Of a stretch of DNA of 26,796 nucleotides, positions 1 to 14,238 are shown one piece after another; position 1 is the stretch's first letter, and the number at the start of each line of letters is the position of its first letter. The notes beneath the pieces are model-generated. The model ran no database searches. It was not told where the DNA came from and saw nothing but the letters and a program-made list of their open reading frames with translations. The stretch is from a virus: the IMG/VR virus record IMGVR_UViG_3300005663_001170, positions 1-26,796 of that record; one strand, 5' to 3'. The translations under genes were made by a program, and so were the position numbers.

Positions 1-1
1 G

Positions 2-76
2 ATTATAGCTAAATTTGATAACGCCCATTTAAAGCTTTATCCTGGTTTACTCTTTAAAGAAGAAAAAAATTTTTAG
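2..76 (+). CDS. 3' end of an unidentified gene (partial)
   Basis: An open frame enters from the left edge and ends at a TAG at 74-76, giving a 24-residue C-terminal tail ending in EEKNF. It is too short to identify. The 71 bases after it, up to the next possible start, are very A/T rich and hold only a weak 5-bp inverted repeat (CTCTT/AAGAG, 121-135) and no convincing promoter. It could be a chance open frame. Confidence 0.3.
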   Translation: MIAKFDNAHLKLYPGLLFKEEKNF

Positions 77-147
77 ATTTTTTTCGGTATCAGGGAAAAA
101 AAAGTTTATTTTTATATCTCCTCTTTTTTGAAGAGAAATAATCCTTT

Positions 148-1605
148 TTGACCATTAATAAATTTTATGGTCAGGCCATTAATCCATCCCAATCTGATAT
201 TTCTGAAATAATAATTGCCGGCAGTGATGTACAAATGATAACATTTGGCGATACGGCTAATGGTACTATTGATAATATCAGAATAACTCAGGTTGGTTCA
301 TACATTCGTACTATCAAGATGCACAGTAATCGTCCTGGCATGATGACGATTAATAAAGTTCAGCTTATTGCTGTTGACTATGCTAACCTTCGTGTTGCTG
401 TTGAGTTCACTTTAGAATCAGCTACAGATAATTTCACTCGCGGGAAAATCGTTGAAGTAGACTCAAGAGAGTTAAATGATGAAGAAGTAAGAATTAGCTT
501 GGAACTTAGTTCAATCAATCCAGCAGATCTATTTATGATTATGGGAGCTTACCGGATTAAACCTTCTTTTCCTGCAATACCAGGCAGTGAAGGAGTTGGG
601 AAAATAATTGAAAGAGGATCTAATGTTACAAATTTACAAATAGGAGACAGAGTTGTTATTCCATTTTATGCAGGAGTTTCTACCTGGGGCGAAGAAATCA
701 TAATCGAATCATCCAAAACTATTCAAGTCCCTTTAGATAACAAAGCCAGTATCCAACAAATTGCGATGGCCTCCATTAACCCTCCATCAGCATACTATAT
801 GTTAACAAAATATGAAAAATTAGAGAAAGGAGATTGGATAATTCAAAATGCTGCTAATTCAGCAGTCGGAAGCTGTGTAATTGGCTTTGCAAAACTATTG
901 GGTTTGAAGACAATCAATATAGTCAGGAGGGAAGAGGTTTTGGAAGAAGTTAAAAATTTGGGAGGGGATATTGTTTTACTCGATGGACCTGATCTAGTAA
1001 AAAGAGTAGTAAAAGAGAAGAATATATATAGAATAGATTTTAATCAGGGGGTTGACTGCAGGCTGATGACAGAAAAAAAAGCGGATCTCATTAAGGGCTT
1101 ACCAATATTTCCCTTTCGGTTTGCATTTGACGGAATGCATGAAGATGGTTATTGGCAAAGAGCCACAAAAATTATGATTGACAGAGGATACAAAAGATTT
1201 ACAAACTATGTACTTTTTAACTTTAAAGACACTTCGGAAGATTTTTATTATAGATTAAAATTACATTCCGAACTTTCATATAAATACAAAGCAGAAATTG
1301 ACGCTTTTCCAATGAAATATAAACCAATATTAAATATACAAAAACAAAAAAATTATGTAGGTATAAACTGGACTAAAAAAGAACTGAGCGGGTTTAATGC
1401 CTTGATAGGAAATCATTCAGGTACTGGTATAGTATCAACAAGAAACAGGAAGGTGTTTAATAATAATGCTATAAACGAATTTGAATATTTCTACGGTAAG
1501 AATGAAAAGGAATTTAAAAGATTAATAAACTACGAAAACATACGTGAATTATGCAAACGCAAAAGCATGAAAAATATTATAAAAGCAGCAAAAATAAAAA
1601 AATGA
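148..1605 (+). CDS. Composite reading frame: unknown segment + truncated MDR reductase + truncated radical SAM protein
   Basis: One uninterrupted 485-codon frame starts at a TTG (148) without a clear Shine-Dalgarno site and ends at 1605, overlapping the terminase start as ATGA. Three parts are visible. Residues 1 to about 95 match nothing I recognise. Residues about 96-290 read as the N-terminal catalytic domain and start of the cofactor domain of a medium-chain (zinc-independent, quinone/enoyl reductase type) dehydrogenase. From about residue 292 the text is the C-terminal half of a radical SAM protein of the kind often found beside phage terminases. Neither enzyme is complete: the reductase lacks its C-terminal half and the radical SAM part lacks the CxxxCxxC cluster motif. 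A working fusion enzyme is unlikely. It is either a recombination scar or an assembly chimera. Confidence 0.5.
   Translation: MTINKFYGQAINPSQSDISEIIIAGSDVQMITFGDTANGTIDNIRITQVGSYIRTIKMHSNRPGMMTINKVQLIAVDYANLRVAVEFTLESATDNFTRGKIVEVDSRELNDEEVRISLELSSINPADLFMIMGAYRIKPSFPAIPGSEGVGKIIERGSNVTNLQIGDRVVIPFYAGVSTWGEEIIIESSKTIQVPLDNKASIQQIAMASINPPSAYYMLTKYEKLEKGDWIIQNAANSAVGSCVIGFAKLLGLKTINIVRREEVLEEVKNLGGDIVLLDGPDLVKRVVKEKNIYRIDFNQGVDCRLMTEKKADLIKGLPIFPFRFAFDGMHEDGYWQRATKIMIDRGYKRFTNYVLFNFKDTSEDFYYRLKLHSELSYKYKAEIDAFPMKYKPILNIQKQKNYVGINWTKKELSGFNALIGNHSGTGIVSTRNRKVFNNNAINEFEYFYGKNEKEFKRLINYENIRELCKRKSMKNIIKAAKIKK
433..1014 (+). pseudogene. Medium-chain dehydrogenase/reductase fragment (MECR/quinone reductase-like)
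   Basis: Within the composite frame, the strings SSINPADLFM and PAIPGSEGVGKII are typical of the N-terminal GroES-like domain of zinc-independent medium-chain reductases. They are followed by NAANSAVGSCVIGFAKLLG, the glycine-rich cofactor-binding turn of this family, and VVRRE/LGGD-type text after the first Rossmann strands. Family members are about 320-340 residues; roughly 190 are present here, ending just after DLVKRVV. The expected next segment (a GIDAVGG-type strand) is replaced by radical SAM sequence. This looks like a bacterial housekeeping gene rather than a phage gene. Boundaries are approximate. Confidence 0.65.
1015..1605 (+). pseudogene. Radical SAM protein, C-terminal fragment
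   Basis: From about 1015 the frame reads RIDFNQGVDCRLMTEKKADL, then RFAFDGMHEDGYW, NYVLFNFKDTSEDFYYRL and AFPMKYKP. These fit the second half of the radical SAM barrel, where FNQGxDxRL is a common strand, and the C-terminal region of phage-associated radical SAM proteins encoded just upstream of the large terminase. The N-terminal half with the three cluster-binding cysteines is absent, so the product cannot be an active radical SAM enzyme. The 3' end overlaps the terminase by four bases, so this half is in its native phage context and the upstream part is what was replaced. Confidence 0.6.
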
Positions 1606-3152
1606 TTCTTACGGCAGAAAAAAAAATACAGTTAAATGCTTTAATCGATGCAAGGAAAAGTTTAAGAGTAAAAGGTAATCACTTAAAATTTATGCAGCAC
1701 TGTTGGAGAAAAAATAAAAAGTTATATCCATTTATAATCGGATTCCACACAAAACGAATTTGTAAAAGAATCGATAAGGCTATTGATGATTATAGAAATG
1801 GTGAATCATCCTATCTACTAATTTCAGTACATCATAGATCCGGTAAAAGTGACATAGTATCAAGATACTTAGGGCCTCATTTTTTAGGTGAATTCCCAAA
1901 CGACGAAGTTATGCAGGTGACATATAAAGCAGAATTTGCCGCTTCCTTTTCAGGCTATGGCCGGGAAATAATGAGATCACAAATATATCAAGAACTATAT
2001 CCTAATGTTAAACTGTCAGATGATACGAAGAAAAAAAATGAATGGCTGATTGCAGATAAGACCAGAATAAATACAGGTGGGAAATTATACGCATCGGGCC
2101 TGCATTCCGGATTAACAGGAAACGGTTTTTCACTTGGAATATTAGACGATTACTGCAGCGGCAGGGCAGAGGCTGAAAGTTTAGTACAAAGAAATAATGC
2201 CTGGGACGCTTTCACAAATGATTTTATGACACGTATTGCCCCGGTAGGGATAGTTATTATATTAGCAACGCAATGGCATTGGGATGATATTAACGGGCGT
2301 ATTCAACAGGCTATGAAAGACGATCCAAATTTTCCGCGATTTGAAACAATGGTTTTCCCGGCAAGGTCCAGAGATTACAAAGGGCCCGGTAGATATTCAG
2401 GAAAATATTTATTTTTAGAACGCTTTTCGGAAAAATGGTATTTAACGCAGTATGCTACATTAGGAAAATATGGATCTCAGGCCCTACTAGATTGTAATCC
2501 GCAATTAAGAACAGGCGGTCTATTATCACTAGACGGCATAATACTTGAAGATTTAAAAAACTTTCCGGATCTGTTCAGATTAAAATTTGCGCGTATATGG
2601 GATTTAGCACACACAGCAAAACAAAGACAAAAAGACGATCCGGATTATACAAGCGGAACATTACTTGCATTTGAAATGCGACAAAACGATCCGGTATTAC
2701 ATTTATGGATAAAACACGTAATACGATTCAGACATGCAGCAACAAAAAGAGATACTGAAATAAAACGAATTGCCGAAATTGACGGCCCTTTCGTAAAGCA
2801 GGCAATCGAAGATTCGCCAGACGCAAAAGATGCACACGATTATATTAGAAATGCACTTCCTAGTATAAGTTGGAATAAAATAAATATTACAGGCGGAGAC
2901 AAAACCGTAAGAGCAACCCCGCTGGAATCTATATTTGAAACACCTGGACATGTGCACGTTGCAAAAGAAAATTGGTATCGAGATTGGCTAGATGAAATAA
3001 TTAAATTTGACGGCCTAGGAACAAGCCACGACGATCAAGTGGATAACCTATCTGCAGGATACATTTTTCTTATAACTAACACGCTACGAATGAGTGATAA
3101 ATTAAGAAAGTCACTTGCACAAAGACGAAAAAATATTTATAATAACGCATGA
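1602..3152 (+). CDS. terL: Phage terminase large subunit
   Basis: ATP-driven DNA packaging motor and headful nuclease, docking on the portal. The start chosen is ATG 1602, overlapping the preceding TGA as ATGA; an in-frame ATG at 1551 would add 17 Lys-rich residues. In the 516-residue product, HHRSGKSD (about 77-84) is the deviant Walker A, LGILDD (178-183) the Walker B and ATQWHWDD (222-229) the coupling motif. The C-terminal RNase H-like nuclease carries IWDLAHT (Asp334), an ED pair near 403-404 and SHDDQVDN (Asp477/478/481), matching the TIGR01630-type large terminase C-terminus. No small terminase gene is visible; its usual place is the disrupted upstream region. The stop overlaps the portal start (ATGA). 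Confidence 0.95.
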   Translation: MILTAEKKIQLNALIDARKSLRVKGNHLKFMQHCWRKNKKLYPFIIGFHTKRICKRIDKAIDDYRNGESSYLLISVHHRSGKSDIVSRYLGPHFLGEFPNDEVMQVTYKAEFAASFSGYGREIMRSQIYQELYPNVKLSDDTKKKNEWLIADKTRINTGGKLYASGLHSGLTGNGFSLGILDDYCSGRAEAESLVQRNNAWDAFTNDFMTRIAPVGIVIILATQWHWDDINGRIQQAMKDDPNFPRFETMVFPARSRDYKGPGRYSGKYLFLERFSEKWYLTQYATLGKYGSQALLDCNPQLRTGGLLSLDGIILEDLKNFPDLFRLKFARIWDLAHTAKQRQKDDPDYTSGTLLAFEMRQNDPVLHLWIKHVIRFRHAATKRDTEIKRIAEIDGPFVKQAIEDSPDAKDAHDYIRNALPSISWNKINITGGDKTVRATPLESIFETPGHVHVAKENWYRDWLDEIIKFDGLGTSHDDQVDNLSAGYIFLITNTLRMSDKLRKSLAQRRKNIYNNA

Positions 3153-4669
3153 GTTTAAGAACAGCACTATCTAATTGGGTTTTTAGTTGGTTTAAAAGTA
3201 GAGACGATGTTTCAAATCCTACAAAACGACAGCGGAGATCCCCTGTTGATGTTGATTTTACTGACTCCATGCAATGCAACGCAGAATTAACAAAAGGGTT
3301 ATATCACAACAGTTATCCTGGATTAAAACTATCCGGAGCCATGGCATACACACCCATAGCAACGCCAATTTGGTTTATGGGAATTCCTGTTGCATCTACC
3401 GCAGAAGATAACGAAGATATAAACGACAAATTAAAAGAAATAACAAAAGATAAGGTCCAGGATTTTTCAGAAATACATTTACAATCTCACAGAGATGGGA
3501 CCTGCTGGATCTATCCGTATTATTCGAATAAAGATGGTAAAGTAATATGGGAATTTATACAGGATGAAACAATAACCGATATAATAAGAGATATAAACAC
3601 AGGTGAAATAATAAAACTGATAACCGATGAGGAAATTACTATCTCAACAGATTACGACACAGTCGTTACAGTAAGACGGCAACGAATATTTACTAAAATT
3701 AAAGTAGAAACAAAATGGCTTAAAGGGTCTGGAAGCATACCAGGACAATTAAAAGATAGCGCAAAAAGAAATGTGGCAGGAACAATACCGATTCACTTTT
3801 CAAATAATAAAGACGGAAACGAGATCCGGGGACATTCTGATTATGAACGTATATTATCGGACCTTAAAAACTACCATGATATTGATTATAAATGGTCTTT
3901 ATTCTTATCAAAGTTCGGGCCGAAAATGGTTGTTGAATTAGAAGATGTTAAAAAATGGCTTGAAAATAATGGCTATAATGATCTTAATGATATAAACATC
4001 GCAACCGATGATATATTTTTAAATTATTATGATAGGGAAAAAATAACTTATATATTTCCGGAAGGGGCTTTTGTAGCATATGATCAAGCTCTTAAAAAAA
4101 TATTCCGTAAACTTGTTGAAGGTTCTGGTATATGTGAAATTCTATGGGGCAATAAAGTAAGCGGAAACTTGGGATCTTATGAAGATCAAATGGACCAGGT
4201 TGTTAAGCTTGTAAATGAAAAGAGAAGACAAAAAACAAAATCATATAATAAATTATTTCTTATAACCCTGCAGCTTGAAATGTTGGCAAGTATAAAAACT
4301 ATACCAGAGATAGAAATTAAAATAGAATGGGACTTCCTTGCTGCAATAAGCGAAGAAACAAAATCCGTTATATTTAAAAACTTTGCAGAAGGAGTTGCAA
4401 CATTAATAGATGCTGCAGGAATAACAATCGAACAATTATTTAATTTATGGGATAAATTATATCCAGGTTCAACAGAGGATGATTTTGAAATGTTTAGAAA
4501 AGGTCTTGTGGCAATGGCTGAACATAAACAATATAAGGATGCTTCTTTAGAAATCGCGGCAGATTTTAGAGGCGATCAAAGGATAGATGAAAATGAGGAA
4601 ACAGTATTAAATAAATCAACAGATGCGGCAAAAGAATTACAAAAAATCCTATATAATAAACAAAAATGA
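3149..4669 (+). CDS. Portal protein
   Basis: A 506-residue protein directly after the large terminase and before a MuF-like gene, the invariant place of the portal. Length and character suit the SPP1 gp6-like portal family: an N-terminal segment with IATPIWFMGIPV, a central wing region (DGTCWIYPYY then an acidic/aromatic strand), a helical stem region around residues 300-420 with EGSGICEILWGN, and an acidic, lysine-rich C-terminal tail. The portal forms the dodecameric channel at one capsid vertex. It is linked to its neighbours by four-base overlaps (ATGA) at both ends. Identification rests on order, size and composition, not on a catalytic signature. Confidence 0.85.
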   Translation: MSLRTALSNWVFSWFKSRDDVSNPTKRQRRSPVDVDFTDSMQCNAELTKGLYHNSYPGLKLSGAMAYTPIATPIWFMGIPVASTAEDNEDINDKLKEITKDKVQDFSEIHLQSHRDGTCWIYPYYSNKDGKVIWEFIQDETITDIIRDINTGEIIKLITDEEITISTDYDTVVTVRRQRIFTKIKVETKWLKGSGSIPGQLKDSAKRNVAGTIPIHFSNNKDGNEIRGHSDYERILSDLKNYHDIDYKWSLFLSKFGPKMVVELEDVKKWLENNGYNDLNDINIATDDIFLNYYDREKITYIFPEGAFVAYDQALKKIFRKLVEGSGICEILWGNKVSGNLGSYEDQMDQVVKLVNEKRRQKTKSYNKLFLITLQLEMLASIKTIPEIEIKIEWDFLAAISEETKSVIFKNFAEGVATLIDAAGITIEQLFNLWDKLYPGSTEDDFEMFRKGLVAMAEHKQYKDASLEIAADFRGDQRIDENEETVLNKSTDAAKELQKILYNKQK

Positions 4670-5637
4670 CAAGTGCAGAATATAAAAGAATATATTCACG
4701 TACCCTGAGAAGCGGTTCAAGAATAACCAGAGATATAATTAAACAACTACAGTTGACTTTTAATGATGCTGCAAGGCTGGCAGCCACGCAGGTAAGAAAT
4801 GCAGAGCTTGCGGGCCTATCGGATCTTACAGTACAGTCATGGCGGAATATTCAATTATCACTACAAGAAGGATCTTTAATGATTACAGACCGGCTTGCAG
4901 AGTTGTTGAATAGAAATTTAATAACCGTCGCAAATAAAGTAACAAGTATCGATAGAACATATTTAGTTAATATAATAATAGAAAATAATATCAAGTTAAG
5001 TTTATCAAATATTCAAAATATATTTACAGGCGTCAATCAAAATGTTTTATTAGCAACCTTGAATCGAATATATGCAGACGGATACACGTACAGCCAAAGA
5101 ATTTGGAATGTTGGCCTTAACTATCAGGAAAATATTAGAAGACTTATCACATCTGATCTGGCAGTAGGCAGGGACCTTGTACAAACAGCCAGAGATTTAG
5201 AAGTATATGTACTTAAGGACCGGGCCGCGGTTGCTCAACGATGGGGGGATTTATTAAAGGGAAATACTGATTGGTTAAGACGGATAGGAAAAGATATTGA
5301 TTATAATGCTTTGAGAGTAATACGATCCGAATTATATGCATCCCTGCAGAGTGCATCGGCTTTAAGCGGGGCAGCAAATCCGGGTGCTTCAGGATGGTAT
5401 ACATGGACCCGACAAAATTCTATTGATTGGGGTTGTAACTGTCCGGATAATGCTGCAGGCAGCCCGTACACATTACACGGTTTACCATCGTATGATCATC
5501 CTAATTGTCTATGCATTGTTACGCCGATTTTAAGAAATAGAACTCAATTTGTAAACGATTTAAAGAAATGGTCGAACGGTGGATCGGTTGACTATATTGA
5601 TTCATGGTATTATAATTATTATCAATTCGCAGCTTAA
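4666..5637 (+). CDS. MuF-like minor head (head morphogenesis) protein
   Basis: A 323-residue protein with a mostly helical N-terminal half and a C-terminal MuF-type domain. The signature is C257-N-C259-P, then a loop, then H278-P-N-C281-L-C283, the HPxCxC pattern of phage Mu F / SPP1 gp7 head-morphogenesis proteins, which probably binds a metal. A preceding helix carries RVIRSELYASLQSA, also typical of the family. These minor head proteins associate with the portal and enter the capsid. The start ATG overlaps the portal stop as ATGA. There is no fused toxin domain, as some MuF proteins have. It is the last gene before a structured intergenic region and a promoter. Confidence 0.85.
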   Translation: MTSAEYKRIYSRTLRSGSRITRDIIKQLQLTFNDAARLAATQVRNAELAGLSDLTVQSWRNIQLSLQEGSLMITDRLAELLNRNLITVANKVTSIDRTYLVNIIIENNIKLSLSNIQNIFTGVNQNVLLATLNRIYADGYTYSQRIWNVGLNYQENIRRLITSDLAVGRDLVQTARDLEVYVLKDRAAVAQRWGDLLKGNTDWLRRIGKDIDYNALRVIRSELYASLQSASALSGAANPGASGWYTWTRQNSIDWGCNCPDNAAGSPYTLHGLPSYDHPNCLCIVTPILRNRTQFVNDLKKWSNGGSVDYIDSWYYNYYQFAA

Positions 5638-5644
5638 AAAATAA

Positions 5645-5714
5645 AGTAGGGTGGTGTAATGGGAACATACCGTAAGGAAATACGGAGATGTAGGTTCGAA
5701 TCCTATCCCGTTTT
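5645..5714 (+). tRNA. tRNA-like element with non-standard anticodon arm
   Basis: The intergenic DNA carries both internal tRNA consensus boxes exactly: A-box TGGTGTAATGG at 5652-5662 and B-box GGTTCGAATCC at 5693-5703. A cloverleaf can be drawn: D stem 5654-5657/5667-5670; T stem 5690-5694/5702-5706 with a 7-base loop; acceptor 5645-5651/5707-5713 with five of seven positions paired (one is a G-T wobble). The anticodon arm (5670-5674/5681-5685) pairs perfectly but has a 6-base loop AGGAAA without U33, and shares C5670 with the D stem. No CCA is encoded. A decoding tRNA is therefore unlikely; a decayed tRNA or a tRNA-like processing signal fits better. Confidence 0.35.
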
Positions 5715-5719
5715 GTTTT
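5682..5719 (+). terminator. Possible rho-independent terminator (alternative fold of the tRNA-like region)
   Basis: ACGG (5682-5685) can pair with CCGT (5708-5711) around the inner stem GTAGG/CCTAT (5690-5694/5702-5706), with an asymmetric internal loop, followed directly by TTTTGTTTTT. This would end the terminase-portal-MuF transcript just ahead of the promoter at 5738. The ACGG strand is also part of the CCGTA/TACGG hairpin (5670-5685), so the two folds exclude each other. Confidence 0.4.
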
Positions 5720-6975: not shown

Positions 6976-7386
6976 ATGAGTGATGTAAATTTACCGGCAG
7001 ATCCAGATACAAGAGCAGATTTTGCCAATTTTGTATTAGAAGAAAATTGCGATCATATACCTATTGTTGCAGAAGCAGCTATGACATATCGGGACATGAT
7101 TGTAATGGAACCCTGGTGCGGAATAGCAGATCATACTTTGGCTATAGGGGCCGCCGGAACACTACACGTTAAAAGAGGTATACTTGTTAGATCTTCACGG
7201 ATTGAAACGGGAACCGTATTTGCTTTATTCGGACAAGAAGTATGGTTCAACGCAGTAACGGGGGAATATATAGACACAGAAGCTGAGGATCTTTTTCTTG
7301 TCGGTTATGTTCGCGAAGTTGTTAATGCCGACGGCAGATTCGGATTTGAAAAACGTCGATATGTTATTGAAGGGGAGGCAACCTAA
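6976..7386 (+). CDS. Capsid decoration (cement) protein, DUF2190-like
   Basis: A 136-residue beta-rich protein immediately before the major capsid gene. The segment IGAAGTLHVKRGI, then TGTVFALFGQEVWFNAVTGEY and LFLVGYVREVV, resembles the small DUF2190/gpD-like decoration proteins, in which short strands alternate with a GDxVYWDxxTG-type turn. They bind the outside of the expanded shell and stabilise it. A Shine-Dalgarno-like AAGGGGT precedes ATG 6976, and the TAA shares its last base with the ATG of the capsid gene (TAATG), so the two are translationally coupled and made in comparable amounts. The family assignment is from pattern and position. Confidence 0.65.
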   Translation: MSDVNLPADPDTRADFANFVLEENCDHIPIVAEAAMTYRDMIVMEPWCGIADHTLAIGAAGTLHVKRGILVRSSRIETGTVFALFGQEVWFNAVTGEYIDTEAEDLFLVGYVREVVNADGRFGFEKRRYVIEGEAT

Positions 7387-8731: not shown

Positions 8732-9448
8732 ATGCAAATAATCACAGTACAATTTAATTATCCGGACAGATCAAATTATAAAATCCTTTTAGATGTATTC
8801 AGATATTCTTGTCAGAAATATATGCCAAAAGTTAAATTCAATTCAATTTGTATTGAGGCCCCGGAAAATAAAACAGGCCGGGCCCTTAACTTTAATTACA
8901 ATACAATCAAGTTGGAAAAGTGGGTACAGTTTTTAGAATCAACAAAGGATGATAATGTAATATTGGCTGATTGTGATATGATAGCAATAAGATCCGCCGA
9001 GCATGCTTTTAAATTTGATTTTGATATAGCATATACAGAACGTACCAGGATTAAAAGAATACCCAATAACGGCGGTATTATGTTTGTAAAAGTCAACCAC
9101 AAGTCGGTAAACTTTTTTAAGGAAATGCTTAAAATAAATATCAAGATGCTACACGATAGCAGATTCCATCAATTATGGCGGAGTAAATATGCAGGAATGA
9201 ATCAAGCCGCTTTTGGATATATGACAGAAACGTATAGGGATAAAATAAATCTACATAAATTTAAGACGATAGAATTTAATGCTGTTGATTGTGACTGGCC
9301 GAGCATAAACGATAAAACCATATTCGTACATTGTAAATCCAAATTAAGAAAAATGATACTGAAGGAAAATCCAGGCCGACCGGAATATAAAAAAGCCGCT
9401 ACTTTGTGGTACGGATTACATAAGGAAATGGTAAATAAGAAAAAATAA
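8732..9448 (+). CDS. GT-A-fold glycosyltransferase, copy 1
   Basis: A 238-residue enzyme of the nucleotide-diphospho-sugar transferase type, likely cytoplasmic (no signal peptide or membrane segment). After an opening strand MQIITVQF, the metal-binding DxD is D80-C-D82 at the end of a hydrophobic strand (VILADCDM). NNGG at 112-115 and YAGMNQAAFGYM at 153-164 form the acceptor/donor loops, and FVHCKSKLR near 198-206 supplies a late His as in GT8-like enzymes. The donor sugar and acceptor cannot be told. It is the first gene of the accessory cassette, with its own promoter and no ribosome-binding site. It is a clear paralogue of the protein encoded at 12910-13716 and a more distant one of that at 9668-10339. 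Confidence 0.75.
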   Translation: MQIITVQFNYPDRSNYKILLDVFRYSCQKYMPKVKFNSICIEAPENKTGRALNFNYNTIKLEKWVQFLESTKDDNVILADCDMIAIRSAEHAFKFDFDIAYTERTRIKRIPNNGGIMFVKVNHKSVNFFKEMLKINIKMLHDSRFHQLWRSKYAGMNQAAFGYMTETYRDKINLHKFKTIEFNAVDCDWPSINDKTIFVHCKSKLRKMILKENPGRPEYKKAATLWYGLHKEMVNKKK

Positions 9449-9461
9449 AGGAGAAATAGAA

Positions 9462-9659
9462 ATGGAAAAAGGTATATGTGAACATTGCAATTTTTGGATC
9501 GATAGATATGGATTTAGGGGTGAAGAACTTAGAATTGATGCGGAATGTAGAAAAAACGCACCTAGAAATATAAGAGAAAACGATCCGGAACACAAAAGAA
9601 TATTTCCAGTAACTAATTGTAATGATTTATGTGGAGATTGGGAAAAAATAAAGCAATAG
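9462..9659 (+). CDS. Small cysteine-rich phage protein (probable zinc binder)
   Basis: A 65-residue protein, ATG 9462 preceded by AAAGGAG. The cysteines C6-xx-C9, C29, C53 and C57, with CEHCNFW at the start and LCGDWE at the end, match a widespread small family in phage and prophage genomes with the layout CxxCxxW...C...P...CGxWE. Four of the cysteines probably hold a zinc ion. Its function is unknown; members commonly sit among structural genes. Here it lies between two glycosyltransferases, 13 bases after the first and 8 before the second. Confidence 0.65.
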   Translation: MEKGICEHCNFWIDRYGFRGEELRIDAECRKNAPRNIRENDPEHKRIFPVTNCNDLCGDWEKIKQ

Positions 9660-9667
9660 GTAATAAA

Positions 9668-10339
9668 GTGAAACTAATTACGGTATACTTTGCAAGAAGC
9701 AGAAACTATAAAAACTTTTTAACAGTATGGTTAAAATCTGCAAAAAAAATAATGCCTAATATTGATATAAAAGTAATAAAACCCAAACAGTCAAAATGTA
9801 TAGATCATAAAAGAGATACAGCCATAGCATTTAATGAAGCCGCTTATTATGCCCTTAAAAGCAAAGAGCCGTTAATCATAACCGATGTTGATATGATGTT
9901 TATGAATCCGGTTGATACAATCCTGGACCGCAAATTTGACATAGCTATAACTGTAAGAAAATACAGAGCAAAATATAATACCGGATTATGGATTTATAAA
10001 CCATCAAAAAGGTCAAGAAAGTTTGTACATAGTTGGATACAAAATACAAAATGGATTGTAGAGAATTTTAATAAGTGTACTGAACTAATTGGTACTCATG
10101 GCGGAATAGATCAAGCTTCGTTATGGATGACAATAAACAAAATACAAAATATAAATATTCTTGAATTGCCCTGTCAGGTATGGAATGCATGTCAAACGGA
10201 ATGGGAAAAAGTTGATAGACATACTAAGATAATACACGTAAAATCAAAATTAAGATTAACAGCAACCGGTCGGAATGAAGTACCGGAAAATATGCAATAT
10301 TTAAAACCGTTAATAAAAAAATGGAGATCTTATTTATAG
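9668..10339 (+). CDS. GT-A-fold glycosyltransferase, copy 2
   Basis: The start is set at GTG 9668, not at the upstream in-frame ATG 9629 that lies inside the previous gene: from GTG the protein begins (M)KLITVYFARSRNYK, aligning with the openings of the two paralogues (MQIITVQF..., MKIVSVQF...). The 223-residue enzyme has D73-V-D75-M after a hydrophobic strand (LIITDVDM), NTGLWIYK in the position of the NNGG loop, GGIDQASLW in the position of GMNQAAFGY, and IIHVKSKLR near the C-terminus. It has diverged further than copies 1 and 3, so it probably uses a different donor or acceptor. The final TAG is followed by GGGG, which serves the next gene. Confidence 0.75.
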   Translation: MKLITVYFARSRNYKNFLTVWLKSAKKIMPNIDIKVIKPKQSKCIDHKRDTAIAFNEAAYYALKSKEPLIITDVDMMFMNPVDTILDRKFDIAITVRKYRAKYNTGLWIYKPSKRSRKFVHSWIQNTKWIVENFNKCTELIGTHGGIDQASLWMTINKIQNINILELPCQVWNACQTEWEKVDRHTKIIHVKSKLRLTATGRNEVPENMQYLKPLIKKWRSYL

Positions 10340-10347
10340 GGGGAAAA

Positions 10348-10893
10348 ATGAAAGGACATTGTTATTGGTTAACAGGACTTCCATGTTCAGGGAAAACAAC
10401 TATAATAAATGAGCTCGGAGCAATTTTAAATGGTGCCAGCGTACAGCATCACATTTTAGACGGAGATGTTTTTAGAAAGAATATCACAAACCATTTAAGC
10501 TTTAGCAATGAGGACAGGCGAAGAAATTTGTTAATAGCTGCTAATATAGCTAAAATATTAATACTCCATGATATAATTGTTTTGTGTGCATTTATATCCC
10601 CTTTTGTATCTGTAAGAAAAGAAGTAGAAAAAATCATCGGCGAAGAAAATTACACAGAAATATATATTGAGGCAAGCAGGGAAACTTGTATTAAAAGAGA
10701 TGTGAAAGGAATGTGGAAAAAAGCTTTAAACGGAGACCTGCACGCATTTACAGGAGTCGGAAGTGTTTACGAAATGCCACTAAATTCAATAACTATAAAT
10801 ACGGAAAAGAAAAAAGTTTTTGAATCTGTTTCAGAATTAAAAAAAATAATAGAAGGATCTGGTAAATCGTGGGTTCCAACATATCAAATATAG
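10348..10893 (+). CDS. cysC: Adenylyl-sulfate (APS) kinase
   Basis: Phosphorylates adenosine 5'-phosphosulfate at the 3' position to make PAPS, the universal sulfate donor. The start is ATG 10348, preceded by AGGGGG; an upstream ATG at 10321 lies inside the previous gene. In 181 residues the family motifs appear in order: P-loop GLPCSGKTT (10-18), LDGDVFRKNI (37-46), FSNEDRRRN (52-60), CAFISPF (80-86, Ser84 matching the reactive serine position of E. coli CysC), DVKGMWKKA (118-126) and FTGVGSVYE (134-142). All known active-site segments are kept, so it should be active. It stands alone: no ATP sulfurylase (sat or cysDN) or PAPS reductase is nearby, so APS must come from the host. The sulfotransferase at 12338 is the obvious consumer. 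Confidence 0.93.
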   Translation: MKGHCYWLTGLPCSGKTTIINELGAILNGASVQHHILDGDVFRKNITNHLSFSNEDRRRNLLIAANIAKILILHDIIVLCAFISPFVSVRKEVEKIIGEENYTEIYIEASRETCIKRDVKGMWKKALNGDLHAFTGVGSVYEMPLNSITINTEKKKVFESVSELKKIIEGSGKSWVPTYQI

Positions 10894-10959
10894 GATGGCA
10901 TGATTACCGAGTGTAAATAAATGTGTGTATGACCCAAGTCTATATTTTAGGGGGTAAGA

Positions 10960-11118
10960 ATGGCGCTCAATAAATGTGAAGTATGTTATAATAATATATA
11001 CAGAGAAGATCTTTGTAAAAACTGCAAAGAGCTATTGAAAAAAATGATTAAAAGTAAAACGTTAAAAGATGAATATAGACCACTTATAAACGGGAGTTAT
11101 TATGATAGTACCCGCTGA
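10960..11118 (+). CDS. Small zinc-ribbon protein (52 aa)
   Basis: A short frame starting at ATG 10960 with the strong Shine-Dalgarno AGGGGG about six bases upstream, ending at TGA 11116-11118 inside the next gene. The 52-residue product has two CxxC knuckles, C6-EV-C9 and C19-KN-C22, then a lysine-rich helix (KELLKKMIKSKTLKDEY), so it is probably a zinc ribbon with a nucleic-acid or protein-binding tail. The 66 bases between the APS kinase and this gene hold no other signal I can support. Its role in the cassette is unknown. Confidence 0.6.
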   Translation: MALNKCEVCYNNIYREDLCKNCKELLKKMIKSKTLKDEYRPLINGSYYDSTR

Positions 11119-11704
11119 ATGTATAAAATGGATAAATCTTCAAAGAACTAAATATAAAAATCCTATCAATCAATTTAAAGATCAAATACAAAAAGAATAT
11201 CTTGAAATGAGAGAATATTTACCGACCAGCGTTGAGTCAATACTCGACATAGGTTGCGGGCTCGCAGGAATAGATATTTTACTTTCAAAGCATTATGGGA
11301 AACCAGAATTATTCTTAATGGATAATAGTGAAGTAAATGGACAAGTTGTTTATGGATATGATAGACGCCGGTCATTCTATTCTTCATTTGAAGCAACAGA
11401 AGCACTTCTAAAAGCTAATTATATTGAAAATTATAATCTTATTGATATAAAAGAAAAAAGATTACCGGTCTTTAAAAAAATAGATCTTGTAATATCATTA
11501 TTATCATGTGGTTATCATTACCCTGTTACTGAATATCTGGAATATATAAATACAATATTATCTGAAAATGGAACTTTGATTATTGATATAAGGGAATTGA
11601 CAGATGGTATTGAAGTTGTACAAAAAGTATTTCCGAAAATAAAAGAAATCAGTTATTATAATAAATCAATAAGAATATGTGCGAGGCGAAATGAGAAGAA
11701 TTAG
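11102..11704 (+). CDS. Class I SAM-dependent methyltransferase, copy A
   Basis: A 200-residue Rossmann-type methyltransferase. Motif I is SILDIGCGLAGID (46-58); LFLMDNSE (70-77) carries the acidic residue that binds the ribose of SAM; IDLVISLLSCGYHYPV and the strand GTLIIDIREL complete the fold. The substrate is not evident; small enzymes of this shape methylate sugars, lipids and small molecules. It begins inside the preceding zinc-ribbon gene (17-base overlap) with GGGAG ahead of its ATG, and its end overlaps the next methyltransferase by 14 bases. Its place between an APS kinase and a sulfotransferase points to glycan or small-molecule tailoring rather than DNA methylation, and there is no (D/N)PPY motif. 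Confidence 0.8.
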   Translation: MIVPAECIKWINLQRTKYKNPINQFKDQIQKEYLEMREYLPTSVESILDIGCGLAGIDILLSKHYGKPELFLMDNSEVNGQVVYGYDRRRSFYSSFEATEALLKANYIENYNLIDIKEKRLPVFKKIDLVISLLSCGYHYPVTEYLEYINTILSENGTLIIDIRELTDGIEVVQKVFPKIKEISYYNKSIRICARRNEKN

Positions 11705-12338
11705 ACGAATGATAGGAAAGCGAAGAAATTTAAATAGACCGGGAGTTAGTTTACCAGAATATTTTAAGTACAAAAAAAGAAAGGGCAGCAAGCGTAAAAG
11801 ATGGGATGCTATATTGTCAAGACTGCCTGCTAACATGCCCCTACTTGGTGTCGAGATAGGCATATTAAACGGTAATACGTCACATAGGATATTAAGACAA
11901 AGACCGTTATTAAAACTTTATATGGTCGATCCCTGGATTTCCCCGGAAGAAGGATCAAGTTATTTTAAAACGGGTGATGATAATGCACGTAAGCCAGCAC
12001 AAGAACATGAAAAAGCATATATATTGACATTAAAGAGGGTAGAGTTTGCAGGTGATAGGGCTATGATTATGAGGATGTTTTCACATGAAGCAGAGCAGAA
12101 AATAGAAGATGGTTTGCTTGATTTTGTTTTTATCGACGGTGATCATTCATATATCGGAGTAAGTAAAGATATAAAATTGTGGCTTCCAAAAATTAAAAAA
12201 GGCGGATGGATCGGCGGCCATGATTATCACCATGAAACAAGACCTAATCTTCAGGGTGTAACAGTTGCTGTTGACGAAGTTTTTGCAAAGAGCAAAATTG
12301 AAATAGACGATAATCATACTTGGTTTGTGAGAATATAA
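11691..12338 (+). CDS. Class I SAM-dependent methyltransferase, copy B (Methyltransf_24 type)
   Basis: The start is ATG 11691, preceded by GAGG; a GTG at 11679 would add four residues. The first 40 residues are very basic. In 215 residues, VEIGILNGNTS (54-64) is motif I, YMVDPW (77-82) the SAM ribose site, FIDGDHSYIGVSKDI (147-161) the hallmark of the TylF/CmcI-like Methyltransf_24 group, and GGWIGGHDYHH (171-181) adds acidic/His residues that in relatives bind a divalent metal for catalysis. Members O-methylate sugars and other hydroxyl groups. It is unrelated in sequence detail to copy A, so two different methylations are likely. The TAA overlaps the next ATG (TAATG). Confidence 0.82.
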   Translation: MRRIRRMIGKRRNLNRPGVSLPEYFKYKKRKGSKRKRWDAILSRLPANMPLLGVEIGILNGNTSHRILRQRPLLKLYMVDPWISPEEGSSYFKTGDDNARKPAQEHEKAYILTLKRVEFAGDRAMIMRMFSHEAEQKIEDGLLDFVFIDGDHSYIGVSKDIKLWLPKIKKGGWIGGHDYHHETRPNLQGVTVAVDEVFAKSKIEIDDNHTWFVRI

Positions 12339-12913
12339 TGATAGTAATGATACTTGGAATGTCAAAAAGCGGTACAACACTGGCAGCAAGAACGCTGGAT
12401 GCTGCAGGAATAAACTTTAGTCCAGAAAAAAAGCGGGCTGATTATCCTTCCTGCCCTTATGAGAATTTGGAAGGTTGCAGAATATGCATGGAACAGATTG
12501 AGATAGATAGAAAAAAATCTTTATATTACCCAACTAAAATAAAAGATAGCACAAGAATTGTCTCTTATATAAAAATGAGATCAAAGCAGGATAGAAATTG
12601 GGGGTTTAAATTTCCTTACCTTACTTTTGTATATCATATATGGAAGAAATATTTACCGGAAGACCATATTGCAATAGCATTAAAAAGAACTCTGGAAGGA
12701 TTATTATGGCATTATAGTAAAAAAGGAAAAATAATATTAACGGAAAATAAAAAACAAACAATATTAAACATACAAGAGAAATATAATAACCTTATAGATA
12801 ATTATGGAATACCTGTGATACAATTTGAGGACTTTATTAATAAAGGGCCAATAGTACTAGAAAAAATAATCGGTCGTAAATTGCCAGATGTGAGGGATGG
12901 GAAAAAACATTGA
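12338..12913 (+). CDS. Sulfotransferase-like protein (PAPS-dependent)
   Basis: Predicted to transfer sulfate from PAPS to a hydroxyl or amine of a glycan. The start ATG 12338 overlaps the previous stop; a TTG at 12320 is less likely. In 191 residues, GMSKSGTT (7-14) is the 5'-phosphosulfate-binding loop, in the variant used by sulfotransferases rather than a kinase P-loop. KFPYLTFVYHIWKKYLP and IAIALKRTLEGLLWHYS (112-127) sit where the 3'-phosphate-binding Arg and Ser segment lies, and VIQFEDFINKGPIVLEKIIG (160-179) matches the usual family C-terminus (YExF...P...L..I..F.G). It is shorter than typical 250-300-residue members, so the acceptor lid is small. The APS kinase 1.4 kb upstream supplies its co-substrate. 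Confidence 0.75.
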   Translation: MIVMILGMSKSGTTLAARTLDAAGINFSPEKKRADYPSCPYENLEGCRICMEQIEIDRKKSLYYPTKIKDSTRIVSYIKMRSKQDRNWGFKFPYLTFVYHIWKKYLPEDHIAIALKRTLEGLLWHYSKKGKIILTENKKQTILNIQEKYNNLIDNYGIPVIQFEDFINKGPIVLEKIIGRKLPDVRDGKKH

Positions 12914-13716
12914 AAATAGTTAGTGTACAATTTGATTATGGCGGATTACAAAGTTATAAAAAATTATCGCAGGTTTTTGCTTATAGCGTAAAAAAGAATT
13001 GTCCGGATGCAGATTTAGAATTAATAAATGCAAAACCACCAGAAATAAAAAGGAAAATCAGAAGTAAAAGCTTTGCAACTAATACTTTAAAAATAAAATT
13101 ATGGCTTAATGCATTAAGAAGTACGACGGACGATGTTGTATTTATGGATTGTGATATGATTGTTCTTAAAGATATATCATCAGCTTTTAAAAATGATTTT
13201 GATATTGGATATACGAAAAGAACCGGATCGAGAATTCCTTATAATGGCGGTGTTGTATTTGTTAAAAATACCCCGGAAGCTATAAAGTTTATTGAGCACT
13301 GGAAAGAAATAAACGACAAAATGTATAATGATTATACTTTCCATCATACATATAGAAATAAATACGCAGGAATGAATCAAGCGGCGTTCGGTTATATAAT
13401 GGAAACCGGAGGATATAAGACAAAATTAAAAAAGTTTAGTTGTGATATATGGAATGCATGTGTAGAAAATTGGCCGAAAATAAATGATGAAACACGAATT
13501 GTACATATTAAAGGGGCTTTGCGAAGATCCGTATTGATGAATAGATCAATAGCCGGGTGTAGGTTCAGACGTGCAATAATACTTTGGAGAAATTTAGCAA
13601 TAGAAGCAGGATTAATACACGCGCCGAAATTAGATGTTAATACAGCAACGCCAATAACACCCCACCCGCTTATAAGAAAAGTAAGAGGATTAAGAAGATC
13701 TCGAAGAAGGTATTGA
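12910..13716 (+). CDS. GT-A-fold glycosyltransferase, copy 3
   Basis: A TTG start at 12910 overlaps the previous TGA (TTGA); from it the protein opens MKIVSVQFDY, aligning with the other two copies. In 268 residues, D80-C-D82-M (same position as copy 1), YNGGVVFVK (111-119), KYAGMNQAAFGYIMET (151-166) and RIVHIKGALRR (196-206) are conserved. It shares KYAGMNQAAFGY exactly with copy 1 and extends about 30 residues further, with a Pro-containing, Arg-rich tail (RKVRGLRRSRRRY). It closes the accessory cassette; 30 bases later the connector genes resume with no terminator between, so its transcript may continue into them. Confidence 0.75.
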   Translation: MKIVSVQFDYGGLQSYKKLSQVFAYSVKKNCPDADLELINAKPPEIKRKIRSKSFATNTLKIKLWLNALRSTTDDVVFMDCDMIVLKDISSAFKNDFDIGYTKRTGSRIPYNGGVVFVKNTPEAIKFIEHWKEINDKMYNDYTFHHTYRNKYAGMNQAAFGYIMETGGYKTKLKKFSCDIWNACVENWPKINDETRIVHIKGALRRSVLMNRSIAGCRFRRAIILWRNLAIEAGLIHAPKLDVNTATPITPHPLIRKVRGLRRSRRRY

Positions 13717-13746: not shown

Positions 13747-14238
13747 ATGGCTACTACAACCGATATTAGAAATTTAAGAATTGACGTGAGTGATCCTCCG
13801 GATATAAATCATATAATATCCGTTGCAACAGATACGGATCTACCAACAAAACCAAAACATCAAACAGTATATTATATAACAGACACTGAAAGATATGTAC
13901 AAACTGAAAAGACGATTGACGCAAGTGCAGCCGATTATATAAACGTTGAATTGTTTTTATCTGACAGTAAGATTGAAAGTCTTATAGATGCTAGCGGTTA
14001 TGATAAGGCCCTGTACAAAGTCGTCAAACTTATTGCATCAAAACTTGGGAGTAAACTTCTACTTGTCAAAAATGCCAGTGGTGCAGAATCTATCGAATAT
14101 TTAAAACTTCTTGATTTATACAAATACTATAAAGGTATTGTCGCAGATTTTAAAGAAGAAGAAAAAGACAAAAGCAGTAATGATACTGGCAGATTAGGAC
14201 AGACAAGTTATACACAAATAGCCGGGGGCAATCTTTGA
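13747..14238 (+). CDS. Probable head-tail connector (adaptor) protein
   Basis: A 163-residue acidic protein whose position, first of the connector genes after the capsid block and accessory cassette, fits the adaptor that docks under the portal. It has a beta-rich first half (QTVYYITDTERYVQTEK) and a helical second half (SLIDASGYDKALYKVVKLIASKLGSKLLL, split here by a turn) as in gp6-like adaptors. An AGGAG lies 11 bases before ATG 13747; an out-of-frame ATG at 13740 opens only a nine-codon frame. The assignment rests on order and secondary-structure impression. Confidence 0.5.
   Translation: MATTTDIRNLRIDVSDPPDINHIISVATDTDLPTKPKHQTVYYITDTERYVQTEKTIDASAADYINVELFLSDSKIESLIDASGYDKALYKVVKLIASKLGSKLLLVKNASGAESIEYLKLLDLYKYYKGIVADFKEEEKDKSSNDTGRLGQTSYTQIAGGNL

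What the first reader, a model, noticed from the sequence alone, without database searches (positions are those of the whole stretch)
8732..13716. Phage-encoded sulfo-glycan modification cassette inside the head gene block
Seen: nine collinear genes between the major capsid and connector genes, with three GT-A glycosyltransferases, an APS kinase with all catalytic segments intact, a sulfotransferase-like protein with the GMSKSGTT PAPS loop, two different SAM methyltransferases and two small Cys-rich proteins. Known: APS kinase makes PAPS, and sulfotransferases use it to sulfate hydroxyl or amino groups; glycosylated virion proteins have been reported in some phages. Inference: together these form a pathway that builds a methylated, sulfated glycan, most likely on virion proteins given the late, head-block location, or else on the host surface to block other phages. 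A dedicated phage PAPS-plus-sulfotransferase system for glycan sulfation is, to my knowledge, not a described system.
Basis: partly seen in the sequence, partly recalled or inferred. Interest (0 to 1): 0.92.

Follow-up and report, generated by a model that had tools for sequence, protein, structure and literature searches.

The report
Phage sulfated-sugar cassette among head genes
A phage of unknown host carries, among its head-building genes, a set of enzymes that looks able to build a sugar chain and decorate it with methyl and sulfate groups, probably on the virus particle, and related sets recur in other phages, where the role of sulfate-transferring enzymes is still an open question.

Summary
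Window 8732-13716 carries nine collinear genes inside the head block: three paralogous GT-A glycosyltransferases, a full APS kinase, two methyltransferases, two small Cys-rich proteins and a small sulfotransferase-like protein. The last models confidently (pLDDT 91). On realignment its nine best solved structures are PAPS sulfotransferases, though guanylate kinases lie within about 1 Z. It keeps the K-S-G-T PAPS loop in 11 of 11 homologues and has no Walker A lysine. It is the least diverged of 14 proteins compared with a sister phage.

The cassette recurs: in 18 related virus contigs it sits in one of four slots between terminase and the connector-type gene; 10 of the 18 carry the sulfotransferase. 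APS kinase occurs in 3 of 11 distinct sulfotransferase contigs, twice fused to a nucleotidyltransferase domain. Among 44 virus records tested, all 9 with a full-length APS kinase have a sulfotransferase, against 2 of 35 with truncated CysC-like kinases.

Best reading: a phage PAPS-plus-sulfotransferase arm added to a virion-glycosylation cassette of the mycobacteriophage or PBCV-1 type. Enzyme identities are well supported. Sulfation itself and the target (virion, not host surface or DNA) are inferred. New variant of a known kind.

The parts
8732..9448 (+). GT1, GT-A glycosyltransferase (fold by homology to GT3), DCD motif
   Evidence: 44% identical to GT3, DxD Asp pair conserved; PF03407 20.6 bits, just below cut-off 22; 65% identical in L003
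9462..9659 (+). small Cys-rich protein, 65 aa
   Evidence: ORF; no Pfam, PHROG or NCBIfam match; no BLAST match in L003
9668..10339 (+). GT2, divergent GT-A paralogue, DVD motif; GTG start at 9668 preferred to the listed 9629
   Evidence: PF03407 18.4 bits, below cut-off
10348..10893 (+). APS kinase (CysC), stand-alone, 181 aa
   Evidence: PF01583 8e-42; TIGR00455 148.7 bits above cut-off 138.7; PDB APS kinases E down to 1.4e-35; catalytic segments present
10960..11106 (+). small Cys-rich (zinc-ribbon-like) protein, 49 aa
   Evidence: weak zinc-ribbon hits only
11102..11704 (+). MT1, class I SAM methyltransferase (weak family match)
   Evidence: Methyltransf_23 E 0.0023, BioC E 1.4e-5, both under cut-off; 62% identical in L003
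11691..12338 (+). MT24, Methyltransf_24-type SAM methyltransferase (ORF open from GTG 11679)
   Evidence: PF13578 56.5 vs 26.3 bits; PHROG 2675 'DNA methyltransferase' 4e-27; MT24 relatives in 14 of the 18 related cassettes, window included
12338..12913 (+). ST, small PAPS-sulfotransferase-like protein, 191 aa, SKSGTT loop
   Evidence: AlphaFold2 pLDDT 91; top nine VIA rows all sulfotransferases, Z 10.9-11.8, guanylate kinases next at 10.7; K-S-G-T invariant in 11 of 11; lowest pN of 14 genes compared
12910..13716 (+). GT3, GT-A glycosyltransferase, DCD motif
   Evidence: PF03407 31.7 vs 22 bits; AlphaFold2 pLDDT 89; glycogenin Z 16.7 and PBCV-1 capsid glycosyltransferase 2p6w Z 16.6, rmsd 3.0, 192 aligned
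6976..7386 (+). flank: phage cement (head decoration) protein
   Evidence: PF09956 34.2 vs 24 bits
7386..8651 (+). flank: major capsid protein (assigned by position and size)
   Evidence: phrog_3116, unknown function, 4e-8; no Pfam match; syntenic in related contigs
13747..14238 (+). flank: head-tail connector candidate (assigned by position)
   Evidence: no informative family match; follows the capsid gene directly in relatives that carry the cassette in another slot

Best explanation
A glycan-modification cassette, probably expressed late with the head genes. Three soluble GT-A enzymes build a short glycan. One or two SAM methyltransferases methylate it. The APS kinase converts APS (presumably made by the host's ATP sulfurylase) to PAPS, and the small sulfotransferase uses PAPS to add sulfate to the same glycan. 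The likely acceptor is a head or tail protein made and assembled in the same cytoplasm, so the mature particle would carry a methylated, sulfated sugar coat. Shown here: the genes, families, folds, conserved active-site motifs, purifying constraint, recurrence and confinement to the head block. Inferred: enzymatic activity, the order of steps, timing of expression, that CysC serves this ST, that the acceptor is a glycan, and that the glycan is on the virion.
For: (1) Enzyme identity: CysC; ST fold and PAPS loop; GT-A/GT8-like fold, whose near-best matches include the PBCV-1 enzyme that the PDB title describes as involved in glycosylating that virus's major capsid; PF03407 hit in 17 of 17 aligned GT relatives at E <= 0.01; Methyltransf_24.
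(2) Linkage: GT-GT-MT1-MT24-ST-GT is collinear in L003 (one extra gene inserted, CysC elsewhere), at 49-73% identity.
(3) Confinement: in 18 related contigs the cassette occupies four slots: capsid/connector 8, portal/MuF 3, MuF/protease 2, terminase/portal 5. Recognised head or packaging genes lie on both sides in the same locus in 16 of 18; in L019 the contig ends in the first GT, and in L021/L048 the cassette is split over the two ends of one contig.
(4) PAPS link: of 44 virus records tested, a sulfotransferase match (PF13469 or PF03567, E <= 0.01) is present in 9 of 9 with a full-length APS kinase and 2 of 35 with a truncated relative. After removing the three records found through ST or GT and collapsing duplicates: 4 of 4 versus 2 of 35, p = 1.8e-4; against records of 13 kb or more, 4 of 4 versus 1 of 13, p = 0.002.
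(5) ST has pN 0.164, the lowest of 14 genes compared with L003 (capsid 0.374).
(6) No flippase or polymerase family in the cassette; eight of nine proteins have low hydropathy maxima, which suits a cytoplasmic protein acceptor.
(7) Precedent: tandem GTs plus an O-methyltransferase act on mycobacteriophage capsid and tail tube (passages).
Against: No biochemical or virion data. The window ST is under Pfam cut-offs. The usual 3' PAP-binding Ser after the conserved Arg is not evident (recalled motif; H125 in the window). A profile of ST found no sulfotransferase among PDB sequences, and hhalign with another phage sulfotransferase was not significant. CysC is missing from 8 of 11 distinct ST-bearing contigs (several are fragments), so PAPS would then come from the host. 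In L003 CysC lies among connector/tail genes, outside the cassette. In the association test, the window, L003 and L058 sulfotransferases count as matches although they score below the Pfam cut-off. MT24 matches a PHROG called DNA methyltransferase. The slots may simply be cargo hotspots: in L059 the terminase-portal gap also holds DNA-methyltransferase-like and other genes, and a paper on Burkholderia prophages describes unrelated cargo inserted between conserved phage genes (PMC2920897, passages). Loci were gathered around GT or ST hits, which biases what flanks them.
Confidence: 0.5

Rival explanations
1. The cassette modifies the host cell surface (LPS, capsule or another glycan) with a methylated, sulfated sugar, to block superinfecting phages or alter the infected cell.
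For: Sister cassettes contain a UDP-glucose/GDP-mannose dehydrogenase and a TupA-like ATP-grasp (PF14305), which I recall from surface-polysaccharide loci. A sulfated capsule is reported in a marine Vibrio (PMC11641403, listing and start of abstract only). A paper on cyanophage S-SCSM1 discusses phage genes for host surface modification (PMC9602691, passages).
Against: No flippase, polymerase or lipid-carrier enzyme family in the window cassette. The genes sit between packaging/head genes in 16 of 18 related contigs with both flanks visible.
Confidence: 0.23
2. The GT/MT/ST enzymes hypermodify phage DNA (sugar plus sulfate on a modified base) to evade nucleases.
For: MT24 matches PHROG 2675, annotated DNA methyltransferase. 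Phages glucosylate DNA in other systems (recalled).
Against: No thymidylate-synthase/hydroxymethylase family in 20 of 20 family records, many of them fragments (control rang in 9 of 14 genomes). No Tet/JBP in 20 of 20, but its control rang nowhere, so that is uninformative. The GT fold is glycogenin-like GT-A, whereas the T4 DNA glucosyltransferases are GT-B (recalled).
Confidence: 0.08
3. CysC is an auxiliary sulfur-metabolism gene (assimilatory sulfate reduction) and only happens to sit beside the glycan genes.
For: cysC is often listed as a viral auxiliary gene (recalled; a viral-ecology paper in the listing, PMC9529941, uses the word 31 times). Truncated CysC-like kinases occur in viral records without a sulfotransferase (33 of 35). 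PAPS reductase genes occur as phage cargo (passages).
Against: No PAPS reductase in any of the 10 CysC-bearing records searched (control rang in 14 of 14). No PF01747 ATP sulfurylase in 17 of 17 records (control 5 of 14). Full-length CysC tracks sulfotransferases.
Confidence: 0.08
4. The 12338 product is a small P-loop kinase, not a sulfotransferase, and the cassette makes a methylated but unsulfated glycan.
For: Guanylate kinases score Z 10.7 against 11.8 for the best sulfotransferase; kinases fill most of the Foldseek list. Pfam support for the window protein is below cut-off.
Against: No Walker A (GxxxxGK[S/T]); K-S-G-T invariant in 11 of 11. PF13469 is matched at E <= 0.1 by 9 of 11 members, best E 1.9e-6, against AAA_18 in 1. 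CysC present in 3 distinct ST contigs.
Confidence: 0.1

Closest known systems
Mycobacteriophage (cluster O) virion glycosylation: three tandem glycosyltransferases plus an O-methyltransferase acting on capsid and tail tube (Freeman et al. 2023, not held; known here through passages of PMC11600133)
   Same: three tandem GTs with a methyltransferase encoded by the phage; GT plus MT logic
   Different: no sequence match of window GT1 or GT3 at E <= 0.01 in 50,697 phage records; the window adds CysC and ST and sits inside the head block
PBCV-1 capsid glycosyltransferase (PDB 2p6w/2p72/2p73)
   Same: among the best fold matches of GT3, Z 16.6, rmsd 3.0 over 192 residues, tied with glycogenin; virus-encoded GT for the major capsid protein (PDB title)
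   Different: algal virus (recalled); 14% identity; no sulfation enzyme known to me there
PAPS sulfotransferases (TPST1/2, STF1, Cur/Ols sulfotransferase domains)
   Same: fold and PAPS loop
   Different: 191 aa, smaller; under Pfam cut-offs; substrate unknown
Phage-encoded sulfotransferases in marine OM43 phages and cyanophages (PMC10580990, passages)
   Same: Sulfotransfer_3-type genes in phages, function stated as unclear
   Different: the passages list the gene with other auxiliary genes and give no such neighbours; here a cassette with GTs, MTs and APS kinase in the head block
Bacterial CysC APS kinase
   Same: full domain, above equivalog cut-off
   Different: phage-borne; in two sister phages fused to an NMNAT-like HIGH nucleotidyltransferase domain

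Membership tests
PAPS sulfotransferase superfamily | PAPS (5'-PSB) loop [K/R]xGT[T/S] and no Walker A lysine | tested here: met
   SKSGTT at 9-14, no Walker A; K10 S11 G12 T13 invariant in 11 of 11. Motif definition recalled.
PAPS sulfotransferase superfamily | sulfotransferase fold | tested here: inconclusive
PAPS sulfotransferase superfamily | 3' PAP-binding Arg...Ser motif | tested here: inconclusive
   R117 invariant in 11 of 11; the expected Ser is H125 in the window (motif recalled)
Pfam PF13469 Sulfotransfer_3 | curated score of 27 bits | tested here: not met
   window 17.1 bits; 9 of 11 homologues hit at E <= 0.1, best 1.9e-6. So not filed as a PF13469 member.
APS kinase (CysC) | equivalog domain score and catalytic segments | tested here: met
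   TIGR00455 148.7 vs 138.7; motifs; activity not tested
GT-A glycosyltransferase, GT8/glycogenin-like | GT-A fold with DxD | tested here: met
   GT3 model, glycogenin Z 16.7; D80 and D82 invariant in 17 of 17. GT1 and GT2 were not modelled.
Phage virion glycosylation system | tandem GTs with a methyltransferase in the phage genome | tested here: met
Phage virion glycosylation system | glycan on virion proteins | not testable with these tools
   needs mass spectrometry of virions
Serotype-converting surface-glycan system | polytopic flippase or membrane glucosyltransferase in the cassette | tested here: not met
   no such family hit; hydropathy maxima low except CysC 2.23, read as its buried core
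Assimilatory sulfate-reduction auxiliary genes | PAPS reductase with APS kinase | tested here: not met
   0 of 10 CysC-bearing records; control 14 of 14; records are fragments
DNA hypermodification cassette | base hydroxymethylase (thymidylate-synthase family or Tet/JBP) | tested here: inconclusive
   PF00303 0 of 20 with working control; PF12851 0 of 20 with silent control; records are fragments

The most novel reading that the evidence does not exclude
A phage-encoded sulfation system: phages carry their own PAPS supply (APS kinase, in sister phages fused to an NMNAT-like nucleotidyltransferase domain that might make APS and so act as a compact non-homologous PAPS synthase) together with a small head-block sulfotransferase, and use it to build a sulfated, methylated glycan on the virion capsid. 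It would be, as far as I know, the first sulfated phage particle and would explain why phages encode sulfotransferases.
Probability: 0.38. Interest if true: 0.85.

Novelty: new variant of a known kind. Interest (0 to 1): 0.65.

Why it matters
Sulfotransferases are annotated in phages with function stated as unclear (PMC10580990, passages). This cassette gives a concrete, testable role: sulfation of a phage-made glycan, with APS kinase, glycosyltransferases and methyltransferases side by side in the head block, and related sets across a phage family. A sulfated capsid would change particle charge, adhesion to mucus or matrix, and recognition by antibodies or host defences, and sulfate labelling would give a direct assay.

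Tried and rejected
Genome-contig scan with the two-sequence ST alignment: 51 pattern matches, no relative. A second scan with GTs gave three loci: a SAR86 MAG contig, Pelagibacterium limicola, a Cloacimonadota MAG contig; none gives the window's host. Named phages: no match for ST beyond noise (E 0.9 and 2), none for GT1, GT3 or MCP; the 15 listed terminase matches (of 36) are 25.6-29.5% identical, to varied phages. Host remains unknown.

Profile ST against PDB sequences and hhalign with a phage Sulfotransfer_3 protein or with CysC were all non-significant, so sequence alone does not settle the ST. MT24 against PDB found nothing; the GT profile found one hit at E 0.33.

Considered and put aside: that the nucleotidyltransferase domain fused to CysC in L003 and L058 is an ATP sulfurylase. 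Its nearest solved sequences are NMN adenylyltransferases and no PF01747 was found, so its substrate is left open. The viral contigs with a HIGH domain beside a truncated CysC-like kinase were not counted as sulfation systems.

How counts were made. Searches examined 44 records: G000 plus 43 of the 80 loci (itself capped at 80 of 150), picked by eye as those whose match reached the kinase part, thinned by eye for likely duplicates; 37 loci were not tested, several with a truncated kinase. G047/G049 and G051/G052 are near-identical. PF00685 gave 4 of 44, none over its cut-off, all in records already positive for PF13469. The PF03567 control rang in none of 14 genomes. A first test with PF13469 alone (7 of 9 vs 1 of 35) is superseded. 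Absence of ST in GT contigs was judged by BLAST within the loci only. In one search the protease/scaffold, TMP, g15573 and g21268 genes were not compared; g21268 is 71% identical over the 151 residues held, close to ST.

Change on checking: confidence lowered from 0.52 to 0.50 and the novel case from 0.40 to 0.38 after adding the cargo-hotspot evidence and the Foldseek ranking.

Full report
WHAT IS THERE. The window is a 26.8-kb IMG/VR virus fragment. A longer contig matches window 1007-5633 and 5713-26796 at 99.9-100% (G001, 48.6 kb). The gene order is terminase, portal, MuF-like protein, protease/scaffold-like protein, cement protein, major capsid candidate, then nine genes at 8732-13716, then connector-type and tail genes. 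Two start sites should be moved: GT2 to 9668, MT24 probably to 11691. 'Major capsid' and 'connector' are names by position only; the portal match is weak (phrog_146, 5.6e-4).

APS KINASE. The kinase passes the curated equivalog threshold (TIGR00455 148.7 vs 138.7 bits), matches solved APS kinases at E down to 1.4e-35, and keeps Walker A, DGD, KGMW, FTG and YExP segments.

SULFOTRANSFERASE. The 12338 product is below Pfam thresholds, so I collected homologues. Scans of viral contigs gave 12 loci, 11 distinct sequences including the window's. The alignment keeps K-S-G-T at the PAPS loop in 11 of 11. The regular expression G.[PSH][KR]SGT[TS] hit 21 of 3506 ORFs of 100 aa or more in the loci then held, all copies of this family. 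The AlphaFold2 model has pLDDT 91, pTM 0.87. Foldseek's best PDB match is sulfotransferase STF1 (E 6e-4), but ranks 2-4 are kinases and 15 of the 50 listed rows are sulfotransferases. In the viral library the best match is named a glycosyltransferase and the second a phage sulfotransferase. Fold alone does not separate the two; the loop, the absent Walker A and the Pfam hits (9 of 11 to PF13469 at E <= 0.1, best 1.9e-6) do. Against: hhalign and profile searches found no significant sequence link to solved or other phage sulfotransferases.

GLYCOSYLTRANSFERASES. The three are paralogues. GT3 models at pLDDT 89 and matches glycogenin (Z 16.7) and the PBCV-1 capsid glycosyltransferase (Z 16.6, rmsd 3.0, 192 aligned), which are tied. 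PF03407 is hit by 17 of 17 aligned relatives.

RECURRENCE AND PLACE. A GT scan returned 39 loci. Of these and the ST loci, 18 distinct contigs, the window included, share the window's head genes. The cassette lies after the capsid gene in 8 (window, L003, L012, L014, L019, L029, L053, L054), between portal and MuF in 3 (L024, L025, L027), between MuF and protease in 2 (L022, L023) and between terminase and portal in 5 (L021/L048, L057, L058, L059, L061). Terminases of L058, L059 and L061 were confirmed with PHROGs. Head or packaging genes flank it on both sides in the same locus in 16 of 18; in L019 the contig ends in the first GT, and in L021/L048 the cassette is split over the two ends of one contig. 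Ten of the 18 carry the ST, 14 an MT24. Against L003, ST is the least diverged of 14 genes compared (pN 0.164; capsid 0.374). Sister cassettes add a UDP-glucose/GDP-mannose dehydrogenase and a TupA-like ATP-grasp. Two cautions: the loci were centred on GT or ST hits, and the slots can hold other cargo, as in L059, where DNA-methyltransferase-like and other genes share the terminase-portal gap.

THE PAPS LINK. CysC passes the cut-off in 3 of 39 records of the GT survey (G000 and G001, the same phage, and G002) and in 1 of 10 ST records (G043). So 3 of 11 distinct ST contigs have it; no record outside these passes the cut-off. In L003 and L058 it is fused to a HIGH-type nucleotidyltransferase domain with an ISGTKERE motif; in L003 it lies downstream of the cassette. 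A scan for that fusion found more phages. Of 44 records tested, 9 have a full-length APS kinase (over 140 bits) and 35 a truncated relative (under 75 bits). A sulfotransferase match (PF13469 or PF03567, E <= 0.01) is present in 9 of 9 and in 2 of 35. In 6 of the 9 the match is above the Pfam cut-off; in the window, L003 and L058 it is below. Removing those three and collapsing duplicates: 4 of 4 versus 2 of 35, p = 1.8e-4; against records of at least 13 kb, 4 of 4 versus 1 of 13, p = 0.002. In L064 the sulfotransferase gene overlaps the end of the kinase gene; in L067 one gene lies between them. No PAPS reductase is present in 10 CysC-bearing records, which speaks against sulfur assimilation. 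The HIGH domain is nearest to NMN adenylyltransferases; no ATP sulfurylase family was found, so whether it makes APS is open.

MECHANISM. Most likely: host APS is converted to PAPS by CysC; GTs assemble a glycan on a virion protein in the cytoplasm; MTs methylate it; ST sulfates it. My odds: CysC near certain; GTs and MT24 high; ST about 0.85; CysC feeding ST about 0.8; acceptor on the virion about 0.6; whole statement 0.50. The rivals are not all mutually exclusive. The host-surface rival (0.23) is favoured by the dehydrogenase and ATP-grasp relatives and weakened by the lack of membrane export parts and the head-block position. DNA modification (0.08) lacks a base hydroxymethylase of the thymidylate-synthase family (one search is uninformative).

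KNOWN VERSUS NEW. GT plus O-methyltransferase cassettes modifying capsid and tail tube are known in mycobacteriophages (PMC11600133 passages citing Freeman et al. 2023; the original was not held). Sulfotransferase genes in phages are known, function unclear (PMC10580990 passages). Four further phage papers that pair the words PAPS and sulfotransferase turned out, in the passages, to concern PAPS reductase (PMC10434257, PMC3118219, PMC2920897, PMC10269572). I found no report of a phage cassette joining PAPS supply, sulfotransferase and glycosyltransferases in searches, which cover open-licence papers only and whose listings were capped. I therefore call it a new variant of a known kind.

Noticed in passing
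window 1-1006: N-terminal part of an MDR oxidoreductase (ADH_N) runs in one ORF into sequence without a Pfam match; the near-identical contig G001 begins at about window 1007 and lacks it. Possible chimeric join or alternative left end.
   Followed up: partly
window 5634-5712: A segment with a tRNA-like ARAGORN hit (5643-5715, anticodon undefined) between MuF and the protease gene is absent from G001; the aligned ends overlap by 18 bases, suggesting a short direct repeat.
   Followed up: partly
L003:8472-9326 and L058:6721-7590: APS kinase fused to an NMNAT-like nucleotidyltransferase domain; kinase first in L067.
   Followed up: partly
L071-L113 (for example L092, on a 326-kb contig): Many viral contigs carry a HIGH-type nucleotidyltransferase gene beside or near a truncated CysC-like kinase; no sulfotransferase match in those of them that were tested. 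Function unknown.
   Followed up: no
L067:7706-10846: Phage cluster with two sulfotransferase-like genes (one below Pfam cut-offs), a PIG-L deacetylase and a CysC-HIGH fusion.
   Followed up: partly
L142 (SAR86 MAG contig) and L143 (Pelagibacterium limicola): Related GTs in what looks by eye like phage head/tail gene blocks, three in tandem in L142; the isolate could be an experimental handle.
   Followed up: partly
G012:13119-13655: PAPS-reductase-family gene in one ST-bearing phage contig that lacks CysC.
   Followed up: no
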